A DNA stretch of 64,000 nucleotides from NCBI GenBank assembly GCA_040901445.1, contig JBBDYQ010000025.1:1-64000 (forward strand). The letters are read 5' to 3'. Of the stretch, positions 22,252-63,867 are shown piece after piece. Each line of letters starts with the position of its first letter. The stretch's first letter is position 1. This stretch comes from Thermoleophilaceae bacterium (GTDB lineage: Bacteria > Actinomycetota > Thermoleophilia > Solirubrobacterales > Thermoleophilaceae). Under the pieces are notes generated by a model. It worked only from the letters and a program-made list of their open reading frames with translations, was not told the origin of the DNA and did no database searches. The translations under genes and the position numbers were made by a program.

Positions 22252-22337
22252 AGCTCCCGACAAGGGCAAACCCGCCGCGAGGCGGGGACGCAAAACCAGG
22301 GGCCTCGGCGATCGCCGAGGCAGCCCAGTCGCCGAAG
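22252..22337 (+). ncRNA. Cyclic di-GMP-I (GEMM-I) riboswitch
   Basis: The leader matches the GEMM-I consensus in order: GGGCAAACC (22264-22272), a P2 stem CCCGCC/GGCGGG capped by the GNRA loop GCGA, GACGCAAAACC, GGGGCCT, a P3 stem CCTCGGCG/CGCCGAGG, and a GGCAGCCCAGTCGCCG closing part. CGAC (22258-22261) can pair with GTCG (22328-22331) as P1. The final bases abut the AAGGAGG ribosome site of the downstream secreted glycosidase, suggesting translational control. Confidence 0.85.
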
Positions 22338-22346
22338 GAGGCACGG

Positions 22347-24176
22347 ATGTCACAGCACCCCCGGAGGCACGGACGCCTCTACATCAAGCTCCTCGCCGCG
22401 GTGGCGTGCGCGGCGGCGCTGCCGGCGATCGCGCCGGCCGCCGAGGCACGCGGCCCGCTGGCCACGATCGTCCAGGACGACGCGCAGCTGCTGCAAGGAA
22501 GCGACGCCCAGGTGGCGGAGCGGATGCGCATGCTGCGCTCACTGGGCGTCGACCGCGTTCGCCTGACCGCCAACTGGTCGGTGCTGGCGCCGGACGGCGA
22601 CAGCCGCAGCGCGCCCGCGTTCGACGCCGCCGACCCGGGCGCCTACCCCGACCCGTGGGGCTTCTGGGCCAACCTCGACCGCGCGGTGCGCCAGGCGCAC
22701 GCGGCGGGCCTGGAGCCGATGATCGACCTCGGCTTCTGGGCGCCGCTCTGGGCCACGCAGGGCGACCCGGGCGAGGGCCGCGCTGTGTGGAACGTGGATC
22801 CGGCCGCCTACGGCGACTTCGTGAAGGCGGTGGTGCGCCGCTACTCGGGCGCTTGGGCGCCCGAGCCCGAGGAGCCCGAGCAGCCGGCCGCGCCCGAGCA
22901 ATGCGAGAACGAGGAAGAGGCATCACAGGACCAGGCGCTGCTGCTCGGCCTGTTCGGCTCCGGCGCCGACGCGCGCGCGCCCGAGTGCCGGCGCCGGCCC
23001 GAGCGCGAGCCGGCGCAGCAGCCCGAGCGGGCCGCGCCGCTTCCCGAGGTGTCCTGGTGGACGATCTGGAACGAGCCGAACCACCCCGGCTTCCTCCAGC
23101 CCCAGTGGAAGGCCCACGGAGACGGCCTGCGCCCGTACTCGGCGCACCTCTACCGCCGCCTCGTGCAGGTGGCCTATCCCGCGATCAAGGGGATCATGGC
23201 CGAGAGCACGGTGCTGATCGGCGGCACGTCGAGCACCGGGGCGCGCTGGCAGAACGACGTGCAGGACGGCACGCCGCCGCTGGAGTTCCTGCGCACGCTC
23301 GCGTGCGTGGACAGCGACTACGAGCCGCTGCGCGTGCCCGAGTGCGACGGCTACCGCCCCGTGCTGGGCGACGGCTTCTCCCACCACCCGTACTCGCTCA
23401 TGCATCAGCCCGACCACGAGGACCGCCGCCATCCCGACGACGTGCGCATCGGCGGGCTCGAGCGGCTCACCGACGCGCTCGACCTGCTCGCGGACGGGCG
23501 CCGCATCGACGGCAGGCTACGCGACGTCTACCTCACGGAGTTCGGCTACGAGACCAACCCCCCGGACCCGAAGAAGCCGTGGGGGCTCGACGAGCAGGCG
23601 CGCTGGCTCGCCTGGTCCGAGTTCCTGGCCTACGACAACCGGCGGGTGAAGAGCTACCCGCAGTTCCTGCTTCGCGACCTGGGCACCGTCTCGGCTGCCG
23701 CGGCGGCCCGCGGGAAGCGCCCCTACGGGGACTGGCAGTCCGGCCTGCTCTTCGAGGACGGCTCGCCGAAGCCGTCGCTCACGAGCTTCCGCTACACGCT
23801 GCACGCCACGTGCGTGACCGCGCGGGTGCGCCGCAAGTACTGGCGCCGCGGGCTGTCGCGGACGATCCCGCGCCGCGTGGTCATGCTCTGGGGCCACGTG
23901 CGCCCGGGCAGCGGCCGGCGCGAGCTCACCGTGGGCATCGAGCGCCGCGGCGAGGAGGGGAGGGCCGCGACCGTGACGAGCCGCGGCCGCGCGGCCCGAC
24001 GCCGCTACACCGCGCAGAGCTCGGCGCGGGAGCCGTTCGCCACGAACACGTGGGGCTATTTCCGCCGCTACGTGCGCTTCCGGCGCGGCGCGGAGTACCG
24101 CGTGCAGACCGCGGACGGCAAGGCGCTCGGCCTGCCCGTCGCGCCGGTGGACTGCGAGCGCGAGCCTAGGAGGTGA
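22347..24176 (+). CDS. Secreted TIM-barrel glycoside hydrolase-like protein under c-di-GMP riboswitch
   Basis: A 609-aa exported protein. The signal peptide ends near 'AAEARG' (residue 35). A (beta/alpha)8 barrel of the cellulase/GH39-like clan follows: 'LRSLGVDRVRLTANWS', 'GLEPMIDLGFWAP', and the acid/base Glu in 'WWTIWNEPNHPGF' (about residue 243). A nucleophile Glu appears in 'YLTEFGYE'. Residues about 170-233 are an acidic, Pro/Glu/Arg-rich insertion into the barrel. The last 140 residues are a basic beta-rich tail. It likely cleaves an extracellular polysaccharide. GAAGGAGG sits 6 bases before ATG 22347, directly after the riboswitch. Confidence 0.8.
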   Translation: MSQHPRRHGRLYIKLLAAVACAAALPAIAPAAEARGPLATIVQDDAQLLQGSDAQVAERMRMLRSLGVDRVRLTANWSVLAPDGDSRSAPAFDAADPGAYPDPWGFWANLDRAVRQAHAAGLEPMIDLGFWAPLWATQGDPGEGRAVWNVDPAAYGDFVKAVVRRYSGAWAPEPEEPEQPAAPEQCENEEEASQDQALLLGLFGSGADARAPECRRRPEREPAQQPERAAPLPEVSWWTIWNEPNHPGFLQPQWKAHGDGLRPYSAHLYRRLVQVAYPAIKGIMAESTVLIGGTSSTGARWQNDVQDGTPPLEFLRTLACVDSDYEPLRVPECDGYRPVLGDGFSHHPYSLMHQPDHEDRRHPDDVRIGGLERLTDALDLLADGRRIDGRLRDVYLTEFGYETNPPDPKKPWGLDEQARWLAWSEFLAYDNRRVKSYPQFLLRDLGTVSAAAAARGKRPYGDWQSGLLFEDGSPKPSLTSFRYTLHATCVTARVRRKYWRRGLSRTIPRRVVMLWGHVRPGSGRRELTVGIERRGEEGRAATVTSRGRAARRRYTAQSSAREPFATNTWGYFRRYVRFRRGAEYRVQTADGKALGLPVAPVDCEREPRR

Positions 24177-39223: not shown

Positions 39224-40390
39224 ATGGCGCGCCCGGCGATGTGGCAGCGGACCCTGCTCGCGGCGGGCCGCGAGCTCGGTGTGGACGGGCTTGCGGCGAT
39301 CGCGGTGGGCGCGCTCGAGCGGGAGCTCGAGGTGCTGCGTGAGGACCCCGACCTGCTCGACGCCGCCCGCGCGAGCACGGTGGCGAACCTCGCGCTGGTG
39401 GAGCAGCTGGCCAGTGGCGACGTCTCGCTCGGGGAGCTCGAGCCTCCTCCGCAGGCGGCGGCGTTCGCGCGCGAGCTGGCCCGCCGCAACGTACCCGTGG
39501 GCGAGCTCGGCCGCGCCTATCGGGTGGCGCAGCTCGCGCTGTGGCGCTGGACGGTGGCGGAGGTGCGGCGTCGCATCGAGGGCGACGAAGAGGTGTCCGC
39601 GGCGATCGAGGCGGTGTCCGAGGCGGCGTTCGCGACCGGCGACGTGTTCAGCACGATGGTGATGGAGCGCTACGCGGTCGAGCGCGACCGCTGGGCCCGA
39701 AGCGCCGATGCGATGCGCTCCGCCACGGTCCACGAGATCCTCGCCGGCGGCCCCGTCGATGCCGCCGCCGCCGGCGCCCGCCTGCGCTACGAGCTCGGGC
39801 AGGAGCACCGGGCCTTCGTCGTCTGGGCCGGCCTGGACGGCGACCTGCCCGAGAGCGCGGCGGAGACGCTCGGCGGCGGCCGCGCGCTGCTCGTCCCGAT
39901 GGGCGTGGGCGTCGTCGCCGGCTGGTGCCCGGCGGACGCGGTCGCGCGGGAGCCGGCGGGCGCCGCTGCCGTGGCGCTCGGCACGCCGGGATCGGGCATC
40001 GAGGGATTCCGCGCCAGCCACCACGAGGCCATGGAGGCCCGGCGGGTGGCGCGGCTCGTGGGACGCACGGACCAGGTGGTGCGCTACGAGGACGTTGCCC
40101 TGCTCGCGCTGCTCACTACGGACCTCGAGCAGGCCCGCGCCTTCGCCGCCCGCCGCCTCGGCCCGCTTGCCGCCGGCGACGAAGCCGCGCGGCGGCTCGC
40201 GGACACGCTGCTCACGGTGCTTGAGGAGCAGGGCAGCCCCCGCCGCGCGGCGCAGCGGCTCGGGGTGCACGAGAACACGGTGGGCAAGCGCCTGCGTGCC
40301 GTCGGCGAGCTGCTGGGCGAGGACCCTCAGCGGTCGCCGGCCGAGCTGCTGGCCGCATTGCTCATCCTGCGCGCCACGCGGGACGGCTAG
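39224..40390 (+). CDS. PucR/CdaR-type transcriptional regulator
   Basis: A 388-aa regulator. Residues about 1-150 are helical ('LLAAGRELGVDGL', 'ELGRAYRVAQLALWRW'). The middle is a GGDEF-like degenerate alpha/beta region ('HRAFVVWAGLDGDL', 'GFRASHHEAMEARRVARL'). The C-terminus carries the PucR helix-turn-helix 'RRAAQRLGVHENTVGKRLRAVGELLG'. Such proteins usually sense a metabolite and regulate adjacent catabolic genes. The inverted repeat immediately upstream is a candidate autoregulatory site. Its stop shares CTAG with the convergent GGDEF gene. Confidence 0.82.
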   Translation: MARPAMWQRTLLAAGRELGVDGLAAIAVGALERELEVLREDPDLLDAARASTVANLALVEQLASGDVSLGELEPPPQAAAFARELARRNVPVGELGRAYRVAQLALWRWTVAEVRRRIEGDEEVSAAIEAVSEAAFATGDVFSTMVMERYAVERDRWARSADAMRSATVHEILAGGPVDAAAAGARLRYELGQEHRAFVVWAGLDGDLPESAAETLGGGRALLVPMGVGVVAGWCPADAVAREPAGAAAVALGTPGSGIEGFRASHHEAMEARRVARLVGRTDQVVRYEDVALLALLTTDLEQARAFAARRLGPLAAGDEAARRLADTLLTVLEEQGSPRRAAQRLGVHENTVGKRLRAVGELLGEDPQRSPAELLAALLILRATRDG

Positions 40391-42222
40391 GCCGCGTTGG
40401 CGCTCGCGGGCTCTTCGGTCTCGTGGTCGGCGGCCGCCGGCTTCGCCTTCAGGACCCTGCGCAGAGCGGCCACGCACTCGGGGTCGAACTGCGTCCCGGC
40501 ATGGCGGTCGAGCTCGGCGAGGGCCACCGCCTCGTCACAGCCGAGACGGTAGGGACGGTCGCCCGTCATCGCCTCGTAGGCATCGACCACGAGCAGGATC
40601 CGCGATTCGAGCGGGACCTCGTCGCCCCGCAGGCCGGCCGGATATCCGCGGCCGTCCACCCGCTCGTGGTGATGGAGGACCCAGCGCGCCTCCTCCCGGA
40701 GGCCGGCCGCCATCAGGATGCCGTGACCCAGCGCCGAATGGCTCTTCATGACCTCGAACTCGTCGCCGGTCAGCGCGCTCGGCTTACTCAGGATCGAGTC
40801 GGCCACGCCGATCTTGCCCACGTCGTGCAGCAGACCGGCTCGCCGGATCCGGGCCGCCCGTTGCGGCTCGAGCCCGAGCTCCGCGGCCACCAGCATGGCG
40901 ACCTCGGCCACGGTCTCGCAGTGGCTGCGGGTCGCCGAGTCCTTCGCGTCGACGGCGAGCGCGAGCGACCGGGCGAGCGTCTGGAGGTGGCGGTCCCCGT
41001 CCCGGAGCTGCCGCTGATCCTCCTCGGCGGTCTCACCCGCGTAGACGGCCACCTGGCGGTGGGAGTGCTTTGCGTCGTAGAGCGCGACGTCGGCGCGCCG
41101 GACCAGCTCGTCGCGCCCGACGGGCTCGATCGTCCCGGCGATCCCGGCGCTGACACGCGGCCGCGGCTCGTGCGGCACATCCGCGAGGGTGGCCTGCAGC
41201 CGCTCGACCGCGCTCAGCGCGCCGGGTATGTCCTCGCTGCTCAGGATCAGCGCGAACTCGTCGCCTCCGACGCGGTACGCGGTGTCGCTGCCGCGGACGC
41301 TCTCGGCCAGGCAGCCGGCAAGCGCCTTGAGGAGCTCATCCCCGCGCTGGTGGCCCAGACGGTCGTTGATCGGCTTGAGCCCGTCGAGGTCGAGCAGCAC
41401 GAGCGAGAGCGCCGATCCGTCGCGTGTCCGGCGCCGCAGCTCCCGGGCGAGGTCCTCCTGGAAGGCGCGATGGTTGCGGATGCCGGTGAGCGGGTCGGTG
41501 AGCGCCGCCTCGGAAAGTCGCTCGAGCTCCTGCCGATCGGCTTCGTGGACGCGTGACCGGTATGCCTTGAGCAGCACCGCGAAGAGCACGAACAGCAGCA
41601 GGCCCACCACCAAGGCTCCGAGGGTGAGCATCACCGCCCGCTCCAGCCTGGTCTCGAGCCCGGCGAGGTCCCGGGTGGTCTGTCCGCGGTGGCGCTCGGT
41701 CCGCTCGATCACCTCGCGCTGGAGCGCGAGCATCTTCTGCTGGGCTGCCACGACCCGCTCCACGGCTGGGCGGGCCTCGGTGCTGCGGAACGAGCTCGCG
41801 CCTCCGCGCCGGATCTCTGCCAGGAGCGTGTCCACGTCCACGTGGTAACGGTCCTGCTCGGCGATGAGCCGGGCGGCGAGCGTTCGATCCGCGGCGTCTC
41901 CCCGCTCGCTGACGCGCGCGGCGGCGATGCGCACGCGCGCGAAGGCCCGGTCGAGCCCCGCTTCGATCGCATCCAGGTCCGGAGAGCTGCTGAGCTCCCG
42001 GCCGTACTCGTCCTCCAGCAGCCGCTGCAGGTCGATCGCGCCCTGAAGCGCCATGTATGCGGAGCCGGCGCTGCGCGAGAGCTGCACGTCCTCGGCCGCG
42101 CGCGCGCTGTGCCTCGCGGTCCAGAACCCGAAGCCGCCCAGGAAGACGAGCACGGCGCCGAGGCCGACGGTCGCGAGTCGTGCGACTGCCGGGCTTGCGA
42201 GCTTGGGGCGGTGGCTGCGCAT
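40387..42222 (-). CDS. Membrane GGDEF + HD-GYP c-di-GMP protein
   Basis: A 611-aa protein. It has two transmembrane helices (about residues 18-36 and 195-215) flanking a helical sensor region outside. A GGDEF domain (about 245-400) has an intact 'YRVGGDEFALIL', so diguanylate cyclase activity is plausible. An HD-GYP domain (about 420-590) has 'LLHDVGKIG', 'SHSALGHGIL', 'HHERVDGRGYP' and 'DAYEAMTGDRPYR', the hallmark of a c-di-GMP phosphodiesterase. Both opposing activities look catalytically competent. The convergent PucR gene overlaps its stop by four bases. Confidence 0.9.
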   Translation of the reverse strand: MRSHRPKLASPAVARLATVGLGAVLVFLGGFGFWTARHSARAAEDVQLSRSAGSAYMALQGAIDLQRLLEDEYGRELSSSPDLDAIEAGLDRAFARVRIAAARVSERGDAADRTLAARLIAEQDRYHVDVDTLLAEIRRGGASSFRSTEARPAVERVVAAQQKMLALQREVIERTERHRGQTTRDLAGLETRLERAVMLTLGALVVGLLLFVLFAVLLKAYRSRVHEADRQELERLSEAALTDPLTGIRNHRAFQEDLARELRRRTRDGSALSLVLLDLDGLKPINDRLGHQRGDELLKALAGCLAESVRGSDTAYRVGGDEFALILSSEDIPGALSAVERLQATLADVPHEPRPRVSAGIAGTIEPVGRDELVRRADVALYDAKHSHRQVAVYAGETAEEDQRQLRDGDRHLQTLARSLALAVDAKDSATRSHCETVAEVAMLVAAELGLEPQRAARIRRAGLLHDVGKIGVADSILSKPSALTGDEFEVMKSHSALGHGILMAAGLREEARWVLHHHERVDGRGYPAGLRGDEVPLESRILLVVDAYEAMTGDRPYRLGCDEAVALAELDRHAGTQFDPECVAALRRVLKAKPAAADHETEEPASANAA

Positions 42223-46248: not shown

Positions 46249-46286
46249 GGACTGGTCGCTGGGCAGCGCGGACGCTACCGTTACGG

Positions 46287-46655
46287 GTGCCGGCCAGGCA
46301 GCCGCGGGCGCCGGGGAGAAATCCGGCGTTCGAGGAAAGTCCGGACACCGAAGGGCAGGGTGGTCGCGCGAGCGACCCGGGGAAACCCGCGGGAAAGTGC
46401 CACAGAAACACACCGCCTAAGCGGCGGCCACACGTGAGCCGTCGCCGGTAAGGGTGAAATGGTGCGGTAAGAGCGCACCGGCGTCGCGGTGACGCGGCGG
46501 CCAGGCAAACCCCACCCGGTGCAAGGCCAAGCAGGAGCGTTGACGCTGCCCGCCGAGCTCCAGGTAGGCCGCAGGGCGAGAGCCCCTCACGCGCGCGAGC
46601 GCGTGATGAGACGGATGGCTGTCCACGACAGAATCCGGCTTACCGGCCGGCTACG
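46287..46655 (+). ncRNA. rnpB: RNase P RNA (bacterial type A)
   Basis: The catalytic RNA of RNase P, about 369 bases. Invariant blocks appear in order: GAGGAAAGTCCGGAC near 46331, AGGGCAGGGTG, ACAGAAACACACCGCC, GGTAAGGGTGAAATGGTGCGGTAAGAGCGCACCG (in two adjacent pieces), AGGCAAACCCCACCCG, and the 3' ACAGAATCCGGCTTACCGG. The 5' GCCGGCCAGGCAGCCGC pairs with the 3' ACCGGCCGGC as P1. Ends are estimated to within a few bases. A terminator follows immediately. Confidence 0.96.
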
Positions 46656-46683
46656 GAAGGGCCCCGCTTCGGCGGGGCCCTTC
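46656..46683 (+). terminator. rnpB terminator
   Basis: A perfect 12-bp stem GAAGGGCCCCGC/GCGGGGCCCTTC is capped by a TTCG tetraloop and followed by TATT. It is the strongest intrinsic terminator seen in the window. Confidence 0.9.
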
Positions 46684-63439: not shown

Positions 63440-63597
63440 GCCGCCGTTCCGAATACGCCGAAGCGCCCGCATGGATGAAGCGGGGCGCGGGGGACCCGGT
63501 GGCCGGAAGGCCGGGGGCGAATCGCCGCCAAGGTGCGGCGTAGCGCAGCTCTTTCAGCGCGAGCCCGTCAGCTAACCCCGTAGGCCTACGAAAGAGA
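63440..63597 (+). ncRNA. Cyclic di-AMP riboswitch (ydaO/yuaA type)
   Basis: Conserved blocks of this class occur in order: CGAATACGCC, GCGGGGCGCGGGGGACCCGG (63480-63499), GGGGGCGAATCGCC (63513-63526), GGCGTAGCGC, and the signature GAGCCCGTCAGCTAACCCCGTAGGC (63561-63585, seen in two halves). It ends at GAAAGAGAGC beside the ATG at 63601, so it can control translation. The ydaO class normally turns off expression when c-di-AMP is high. Ends are approximate. Confidence 0.88.
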
Positions 63598-63600
63598 GCA

Positions 63601-63867
63601 ATGGACTCAGCGCACGCGCGCGCCGAGCGCGCTTACACAGAACTCAGCCGGCCGGCCCGGGCCGATCTGCGCCTCGTGGATGAGCCGCCGGCACGGGATC
63701 CGGAGACCGGAAGGCGGACCGTGACGATCCGCGGCCAGGTGGCCCCGCCACGCCGGCGCTCGCCGGCGGCCGCACAGATCTCCGCGCGACCCGATCGCGT
63801 GGCGATGTGGGCCGTGATGCTCGGCCTCTTCCTGGTCTTCATGGCCGTGGTCACCGCCACGCCGTAG
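63601..63867 (+). CDS. Small membrane protein under c-di-AMP riboswitch
   Basis: An 88-aa protein. A hydrophilic N-terminus of about 65 residues ('SAHARAERAYTELSRP', 'VTIRGQVAPPRRRSP') precedes one transmembrane helix (WAVMLGLFLVFMAVVTA) and a very short tail. No catalytic motif is visible. The basic N-terminus is predicted to lie inside. It follows the c-di-AMP riboswitch directly, so a link to cell wall or osmotic control is suggested by context only. GAGAG precedes the ATG. Confidence 0.7.
   Translation: MDSAHARAERAYTELSRPARADLRLVDEPPARDPETGRRTVTIRGQVAPPRRRSPAAAQISARPDRVAMWAVMLGLFLVFMAVVTATP

What the first reader, a model, noticed from the sequence alone, without database searches (positions are those of the whole stretch)
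22252..24176. c-di-GMP-I riboswitch directly controls a secreted glycosidase-like protein
The leader carries GGGCAAACC, a GNRA-capped P2, GACGCAAAACC and closing elements of GEMM-I, and ends against the ribosome site of a secreted TIM-barrel protein with 'WNEPN' and 'TEFGY' catalytic-type glutamates. This suggests c-di-GMP tunes extracellular polysaccharide cleavage. A GGDEF/HD-GYP protein with intact motifs lies 16 kb away and could supply the signal.
Basis: partly seen in the sequence, partly recalled or inferred. Interest (0 to 1): 0.62.

Follow-up and report, generated by a model that had tools for sequence, protein, structure and literature searches.

The report
c-di-GMP riboswitch before PslG-like glycosidase
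A soil actinobacterium (order Solirubrobacterales) places a genuine c-di-GMP-sensing RNA switch right on the ribosome site of a secreted, PslG-like sugar-cutting enzyme, and related bacteria use the same switch in front of many other exported proteins; it is a known kind of switch in a little-studied setting.

Summary
Window 22256-22337(+) scores 64.8 bits against Rfam RF03167 (E 4.9e-13) and 62.6 against RF01051, both over cut-off. Four copies occur in this genome and 129 of 232 genomes of the order have a match; the fold covaries strongly. Rfam's best label is the 'c-di-GMP-I-GGC' variant, but the ligand-contact bases are canonical (A, not G, at the A47 position), and sister elements precede GGDEF-EAL and HD-GYP genes, so c-di-GMP is the likely ligand. 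The Shine-Dalgarno (SD) sequence sits in the 3' strand of P1. Elements of this layout carry an anti-SD just upstream of the aptamer (0/1000 in a control), which favours translational OFF by c-di-GMP; this direction is inferred. The gene encodes a secreted clan GH-A barrel with two invariant glutamates, nearest to the exopolysaccharide hydrolase PslG. A 58%-identical paralogue in the genome has the same leader, but 108 other homologue loci do not. Across the order, genes behind the switch are almost all exported (103/112 against 9/66 background): pilins, CAP proteins, subtilases, several glycosidase families. The GGDEF/HD-GYP gene 16 kb away is one of 17 GGDEF domains and has no special claim. 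New member of a known kind.

The parts
22256..22337 (+). c-di-GMP-I (GEMM-I) aptamer; best Rfam family RF03167 c-di-GMP-I-GGC
   Evidence: cmscan 64.8 bits, E 4.9e-13; RF01051 62.6 bits; covariation in relatives
22271..22286 (+). P2 hairpin CCCGCC-GCGA-GGCGGG with GNRA loop
   Evidence: sequence; six pairs, three with changes on both sides in relatives
22295..22328 (+). P3 region with terminal hairpin GCCTCGGC-GATC-GCCGAGGC (22302-22321)
   Evidence: sequence; helices 3 and 4
22265..22265 (+). G equivalent to Vc2 G20 (contact to one guanine of the ligand)
   Evidence: alignment A1, invariant; contact residues named in PMC4744006; numbering transferred from the Vc2 sequence as remembered
22292..22292 (+). 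A equivalent to Vc2 A47 (canonical; the RF03167 consensus has G here)
   Evidence: A in 87 of 87 scored aptamers
22332..22333 (+). CC holding the equivalent of Vc2 C92
   Evidence: both C invariant in A1
22254..22257 (+). CUCC, candidate anti-SD that extends P1 against GGAG (22337-22340)
   Evidence: sequence; constrained fold; order-wide test
22335..22341 (+). Shine-Dalgarno AAGGAGG, overlapping the 3' strand of P1
   Evidence: sequence, 5 nt before ATG
22347..24176 (+). secreted PslG/GH39-like clan GH-A glycosidase, 609 aa
23073..23075 (+). Glu243 of WNEPN, predicted acid/base
   Evidence: invariant in 26 homologues; aligns with PslG WNEPN
23538..23540 (+). Glu398 of TEFGY, predicted nucleophile
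   Evidence: invariant in 26 homologues; aligns with PslG TEWGW
40387..42222 (-). GGDEF + HD-GYP protein, one of many possible regulators of c-di-GMP (not part of the switch itself)
   Evidence: Pfam GGDEF E 3.9e-37, HD_5 E 6.1e-31

Best explanation
A class I c-di-GMP riboswitch with the canonical binding core forms the 5' leader of a gene for an exported PslG/GH39-like glycosidase. Shown by computation: the aptamer, its covariation, the canonical contact bases, the SD inside the 3' strand of P1, and the enzyme's fold and catalytic pair. Inferred: when c-di-GMP is high, the ligand locks P1, which extends by CUCC (22254-22257) on GGAG (22337-22340) and hides the SD, so translation is off; when c-di-GMP falls, the SD opens and the enzyme is made and exported, where it trims matrix polysaccharide, as in a switch from sessile to dispersing growth. 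The switch is part of an order-wide regulon of exported proteins.
For: RF03167 64.8 bits and RF01051 62.6 bits. Aptamer covariation far above both controls. G20, A47 and C92 positions canonical and invariant (contacts in PMC4744006). Relatives of the element precede GGDEF-EAL (L130, L135, L153) and HD-GYP (L156, L164) genes, and the own genome has 17 GGDEF, 4 EAL and 1 PilZ matches, so the ligand is probably made here. In 43 elements with the start codon within 15 nt of the aptamer, the 5' flank pairs with the SD with mean score 8.96, against 4.66 for shuffled flanks (0/300) and 4.52 with flanks of the long-spacing elements (0/1000). No + strand terminator-like site in the leader. Fold pLDDT 85.6; profile hit to PslG E 5.3e-8 with both catalytic motifs aligned; PslG first by Z 28.2, 338 residues, rmsd 3.4; GH39 5jvk first by Foldseek, E 9.2e-13. 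Paralogue at C15 has the same aptamer and SD layout.
Against: Swapping 5' flanks among the short-spacing elements does not lower the SD-pairing score significantly (405/2000), so there is a conserved anti-SD but no member-specific covariation. Thermodynamic folding gives only a modest change in SD exposure for this leader (0.44 with the aptamer forced, 0.64 unconstrained). None of 108 other homologue loci carries the switch, so the pairing with this gene family is recent or lineage-specific. The known precedent Vc1-gbpA is an ON switch (PMC4744006). The protein has no significant Pfam or NCBIfam hit of its own, and its substrate is unknown.
Confidence: 0.7

Rival explanations
1. Same riboswitch and enzyme, but an ON switch: c-di-GMP raises expression, so that the enzyme is made during matrix building, as PslG is made together with Psl.
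For: Vc1 upstream of gbpA is activated by c-di-GMP (PMC4744006); PslG acts during Psl production (PMC9075953); type IV pilins in the same regulon would suit sessile cells.
Against: The SD is in the 3' strand of P1 itself and an anti-SD lies just outside P1 in this layout; no alternative helix that hides the SD without ligand was found in this leader.
Confidence: 0.22
2. The RNA belongs to the GGC variant group and senses another ligand (for example another cyclic dinucleotide) rather than c-di-GMP.
For: RF03167 scores 2.2 bits above RF01051; a subset of elements in the order has covarying changes in the P2 internal loop.
Against: The base at the A47 position is A, not the G of the RF03167 consensus, in 87 of 87 scored elements; the G20 position is G, which in the cGAMP-type variants is changed (own knowledge); GGDEF-EAL and HD-GYP genes are among the targets.
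Confidence: 0.08
3. The downstream protein is not a matrix hydrolase but a scavenging or cell-wall glycosidase, so that the switch governs feeding or wall turnover rather than biofilm. (This can hold together with the best explanation of the switch itself.)
For: The family is large (eight matching stretches in this genome), most members lack the switch, and no exopolysaccharide gene was recognised among the few neighbours scanned.
Against: Closest solved relative in sequence and fold is the exopolysaccharide hydrolase PslG, though clan GH-A folds are shared by enzymes with many substrates.
Confidence: 0.4

Closest known systems
c-di-GMP-I (GEMM-I) riboswitch, RF01051, and its variant c-di-GMP-I-GGC, RF03167
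   Same: Full-length match to both models over cut-off; same P2 with GNRA loop, P3, and contact bases G20/A47/C92 as in Vc2.
   Different: Best score is to the GGC variant although the base at the A47 position is the ordinary A; P1 is short and built into the SD.
Vc1-gbpA of Vibrio cholerae (PMC4744006)
   Same: c-di-GMP-I riboswitch directly upstream of a secreted, polysaccharide-targeting protein.
   Different: GbpA binds chitin and is not a GH-A barrel; Vc1 acts as an ON switch at a long distance from the gene, with no recognised SD sequestration.
PslG of Pseudomonas aeruginosa (4zn2, 5bx9)
   Same: Clan GH-A barrel; both catalytic glutamate motifs align (E165 and E276 in PslG); glycosidase linked to c-di-GMP physiology.
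   Different: About 21% identity; no psl-type cluster recognised beside this gene; PslG is not known to be under a riboswitch (own knowledge); low-complexity insert at about residues 170-230 here.

Membership tests
c-di-GMP-I riboswitch (RF01051/RF03167) | Covariance-model score over the curated cut-off | tested here: met
   64.8 bits against 59; 62.6 against 35
c-di-GMP-I riboswitch (RF01051/RF03167) | P2 and P3 supported by covariation in relatives | tested here: met
c-di-GMP-I riboswitch (RF01051/RF03167) | Canonical ligand-contact bases G20, A47, C92 | tested here: met
   contacts from PMC4744006
c-di-GMP-I riboswitch (RF01051/RF03167) | Binds c-di-GMP and alters expression | not testable with these tools
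   needs in-line probing and a reporter
c-di-GMP-I-GGC variant (RF03167) as a distinct ligand class | G at the A47-equivalent position, as in the model consensus | tested here: not met
   A at 22292 and in 87/87 scored elements of the order; that this base defines the variant is my reading of the consensus, the source paper was not held
Clan GH-A glycoside hydrolase, PslG/GH39-like | TIM-barrel fold of clan GH-A | tested here: met
   model pLDDT 85.6; PslG Z 28.2, GH39 Z 26.9; Foldseek E 9.2e-13 to GH39 5jvk
Clan GH-A glycoside hydrolase, PslG/GH39-like | Acid/base Glu after Asn on strand 4 and nucleophile Glu on strand 7 | tested here: met
   WNEPN and TE-G-Y/F motifs conserved; aligned with PslG motifs
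Clan GH-A glycoside hydrolase, PslG/GH39-like | Curated family hit (Pfam Glyco_hydro_39 or Cellulase) | tested here: inconclusive
   none for the window protein; 11 of 26 homologues hit PF00150 and 2 hit PF01229 at E<=0.01
Clan GH-A glycoside hydrolase, PslG/GH39-like | Hydrolysis of an exopolysaccharide | not testable with these tools
   needs enzyme assay

The most novel reading that the evidence does not exclude
In Solirubrobacterales, c-di-GMP riboswitches, many with the SD built into P1, form a dispersed, order-wide translational regulon of the secretome, in which several unrelated families of polysaccharide-active enzymes, among them PslG-like hydrolases, were independently put under direct c-di-GMP control.
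Probability: 0.45. Interest if true: 0.6.

Novelty: new member of a known kind. Interest (0 to 1): 0.45.

Why it matters
It links c-di-GMP to matrix-type glycosidases by an RNA switch without any protein receptor, in a deep actinobacterial order where I found no paper on such switches. The order-wide list of exported targets gives testable candidates for surface biology in these poorly cultured soil bacteria, and the SD-in-P1 layout gives a simple, testable mechanism.

Tried and rejected
GGC variant as a separate ligand class for this element: rejected as unlikely because the A47 position is A. Conserved riboswitch-glycosidase pairing across the order: rejected, no switch at 29 and 79 other homologue loci. 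Transcription terminator as expression platform: none on the + strand. Member-specific covariation of SD and anti-SD: not significant. Average SD exposure over the short class with the aptamer forced could not be computed (not a number for some members), so only this single leader is quoted. Single-sequence search of genome contigs found no relatives; the alignment-based search did. The paper describing the variant riboswitch families (Weinberg 2017) is not held.

Full report
What was checked. The leader at 22256-22337(+) is a strong match to Rfam RF03167, c-di-GMP-I-GGC, with 64.8 bits against a cut-off of 59 and E 4.9e-13 in the window; RF01051, c-di-GMP-I, matches the same stretch with 62.6 bits against 35. 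No such match occurs in 14 control genomes. On 52 distinct relatives the structure has 97.6% of cells paired against 83.4% in shuffles, 13 pairs with changes on both sides, and a covariation score of 0.452 against 0.185 in shuffles (0/500) and at most 0.080 when slid. That alignment was fitted to the model's structure, so the counts lean towards it, but the margin is wide.

Which ligand. The best-scoring Rfam family is a variant whose consensus shows G at the position of A47 of Vc2. The residues that touch c-di-GMP in Vc2 are G20, A47 and C92 (PMC4744006). In the window the equivalents are G22265, A22292 and the CC at 22332-22333; all are invariant in 26 aligned relatives, and A was found at the A47 position in all 87 elements that a strict pattern could score. 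The transfer of numbering uses the Vc2 sequence from memory. So the element scores best with the GGC model but has the canonical core, and c-di-GMP is the likely ligand. Two further facts fit: elements of the same kind in the order stand before GGDEF-EAL genes (L130, L135, L153) and HD-GYP genes (L156, L164), and this genome has 17 GGDEF, 4 EAL and 1 PilZ matches, most GGDEF motifs being intact. The GGDEF/HD-GYP gene at 40387-42222(-) is real, but with 17 GGDEF domains its nearness means little.

How it may act. The SD AAGGAGG (22335-22341) overlaps the 3' strand of P1, five bases before ATG 22347. CUCC at 22254-22257, at the outer end of the 5' strand of P1, can pair with GGAG at 22337-22340, with an AA bulge; a fold with the aptamer forced shows this helix. 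In 43 elements of the order whose start codon lies within 15 nt of the aptamer, the 5' flank pairs with the SD with mean score 8.96, against 4.66 for base-shuffled flanks (0/300) and 4.52 when the flanks come from elements whose start codon is farther away (0/1000). Swapping flanks among the 43 gives 8.61 (405/2000 at least as high), so the data show a conserved anti-SD but not pair-by-pair covariation; the 43 are also not independent, as many belong to one gene family. No terminator-like site lies on the + strand of the leader. Together this favours translational OFF: ligand binding locks P1 and hides the SD. The direction is inferred. Thermodynamic folding of this leader shifts SD exposure only from 0.64 to 0.44.

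The gene. The 609-aa product has an export signal and no Pfam or NCBIfam hit of its own. Across 26 homologues Asn242, Glu243 and Pro244 of WNEPN, and Glu398, Gly400 and Tyr401 of TEFGY, are invariant. A profile of these 26 finds PslG of Pseudomonas aeruginosa in the PDB with E 5.3e-8, and the WNEPN and TEWGW motifs align; E165 and E276 are the catalytic residues of PslG (PMC9075953). The AlphaFold model has mean pLDDT 85.6. Foldseek puts GH39 5jvk first, E 9.2e-13; the VIA alignment puts PslG first, Z 28.2, 338 residues, rmsd 3.4, then GH39 5jvk, Z 26.9, then GH1 enzymes near Z 25 to 26. The margin over other clan GH-A families is small and the barrel is common, so the substrate is open. The statement supported is: an exported clan GH-A glycosidase of the PslG/GH39 kind.

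Surroundings and relatives. The genome holds four copies of the switch: this one; one at C15:49252(-), before a 58%-identical paralogue with the SD in the same place; one before a type IV prepilin (C22); and one before an exported protein of about 310 aa (C4). The two glycosidase copies look like a duplicated switch-gene unit. Outside this genome, none of 29 and 79 homologue loci carries the switch, although these lists overlap in part and cover only the nearest homologues.

The order-wide picture. 129 of 232 genomes have a match. I located 116 elements in the fetched loci, chosen from the top of the score list, so the sample leans to strong matches; one of the 116 is a weak, degenerate copy. 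The genes behind them group into type IV pilins (17), the C4-type exported helical protein (16), CAP-domain proteins (13), an exported protein of about 200 aa without Pfam hit (13), GHL15 putative glycosidases (12), clan GH-A-like barrels including the window gene (10), subtilases (5), LamG-like proteins (4), GGDEF-EAL (3), and smaller groups including polysaccharide lyase PF14099, beta-helix proteins and HD-GYP; groups were made by single-linkage BLAST and named from one or two scanned members each. With a gene choice that ignores hydrophobicity, 103 of 112 look exported against 9 of 66 background ORFs, Fisher p 3.6e-27; the predictor is a simple hydrophobic-stretch rule, the background genes are mechanical ORFs and the riboswitch genes are related to each other, so the size of the effect is approximate. 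GHL15, several distinct GH-A subfamilies, a polysaccharide lyase and beta-helix proteins behind the same switch point to repeated recruitment of polysaccharide-active genes.

Comparison and verdict. Direct riboswitch control of an extracellular polysaccharide-targeting protein by c-di-GMP is already known for gbpA of Vibrio cholerae, there as an ON switch (PMC4744006). What is new here is the enzyme type, the lineage, the SD-in-P1 layout and the breadth of the exported regulon. I rate it a new member of a known kind, with a regulon that would interest specialists.

Noticed in passing
L098, L109, L111, L113, L117, L120, L122, L123, L124, L128, L132, L161, L162, L167: In the P2 internal loop of these elements GGCA-C goes with a pyrimidine in [T/C]CGCA (15 of 15), while GGCA-A goes with a purine in [A/G]CGCA (93 of 93). 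This covarying subset stands mostly before enzyme-like or LamG/beta-helix exported proteins and may differ in affinity or ligand.
   Followed up: partly
window 63446-63601 (+): c-di-AMP (ydaO) riboswitch, 70.9 bits; a following + strand ORF in the genome is an exported 261-aa protein of unknown kind at L250:782-1567.
   Followed up: partly
L116:1227-1299 (-): A degenerate, 25-bit copy of the switch that has lost core motifs but still stands before a gene of the same exported family as a full copy on the same locus: a possible decaying riboswitch.
   Followed up: no
L109:301-375 and 1475-1549; L089:301-378 and 1477-1554: Two switches about 1.2 kb apart on one strand in single loci, apparently each with its own gene in L109.
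   Followed up: no
L003:1501-1680 (C22 prepilin leader): A long-spacing layout: CTCCTCC after the aptamer can pair with GGAGGAG of the SD, and a second GGCTCCTC lies in P3, which suggests a different expression platform in the same genome.
   Followed up: no
window 46286-46658 (+): Bacterial class A RNase P RNA, 195.4 bits.
   Followed up: no
G000:C4:129272-135681 (L004, L009): The C4 switch lies about 5 kb upstream of the genome's best-scoring GGDEF domain, which is in a GGDEF-EAL protein.
   Followed up: no
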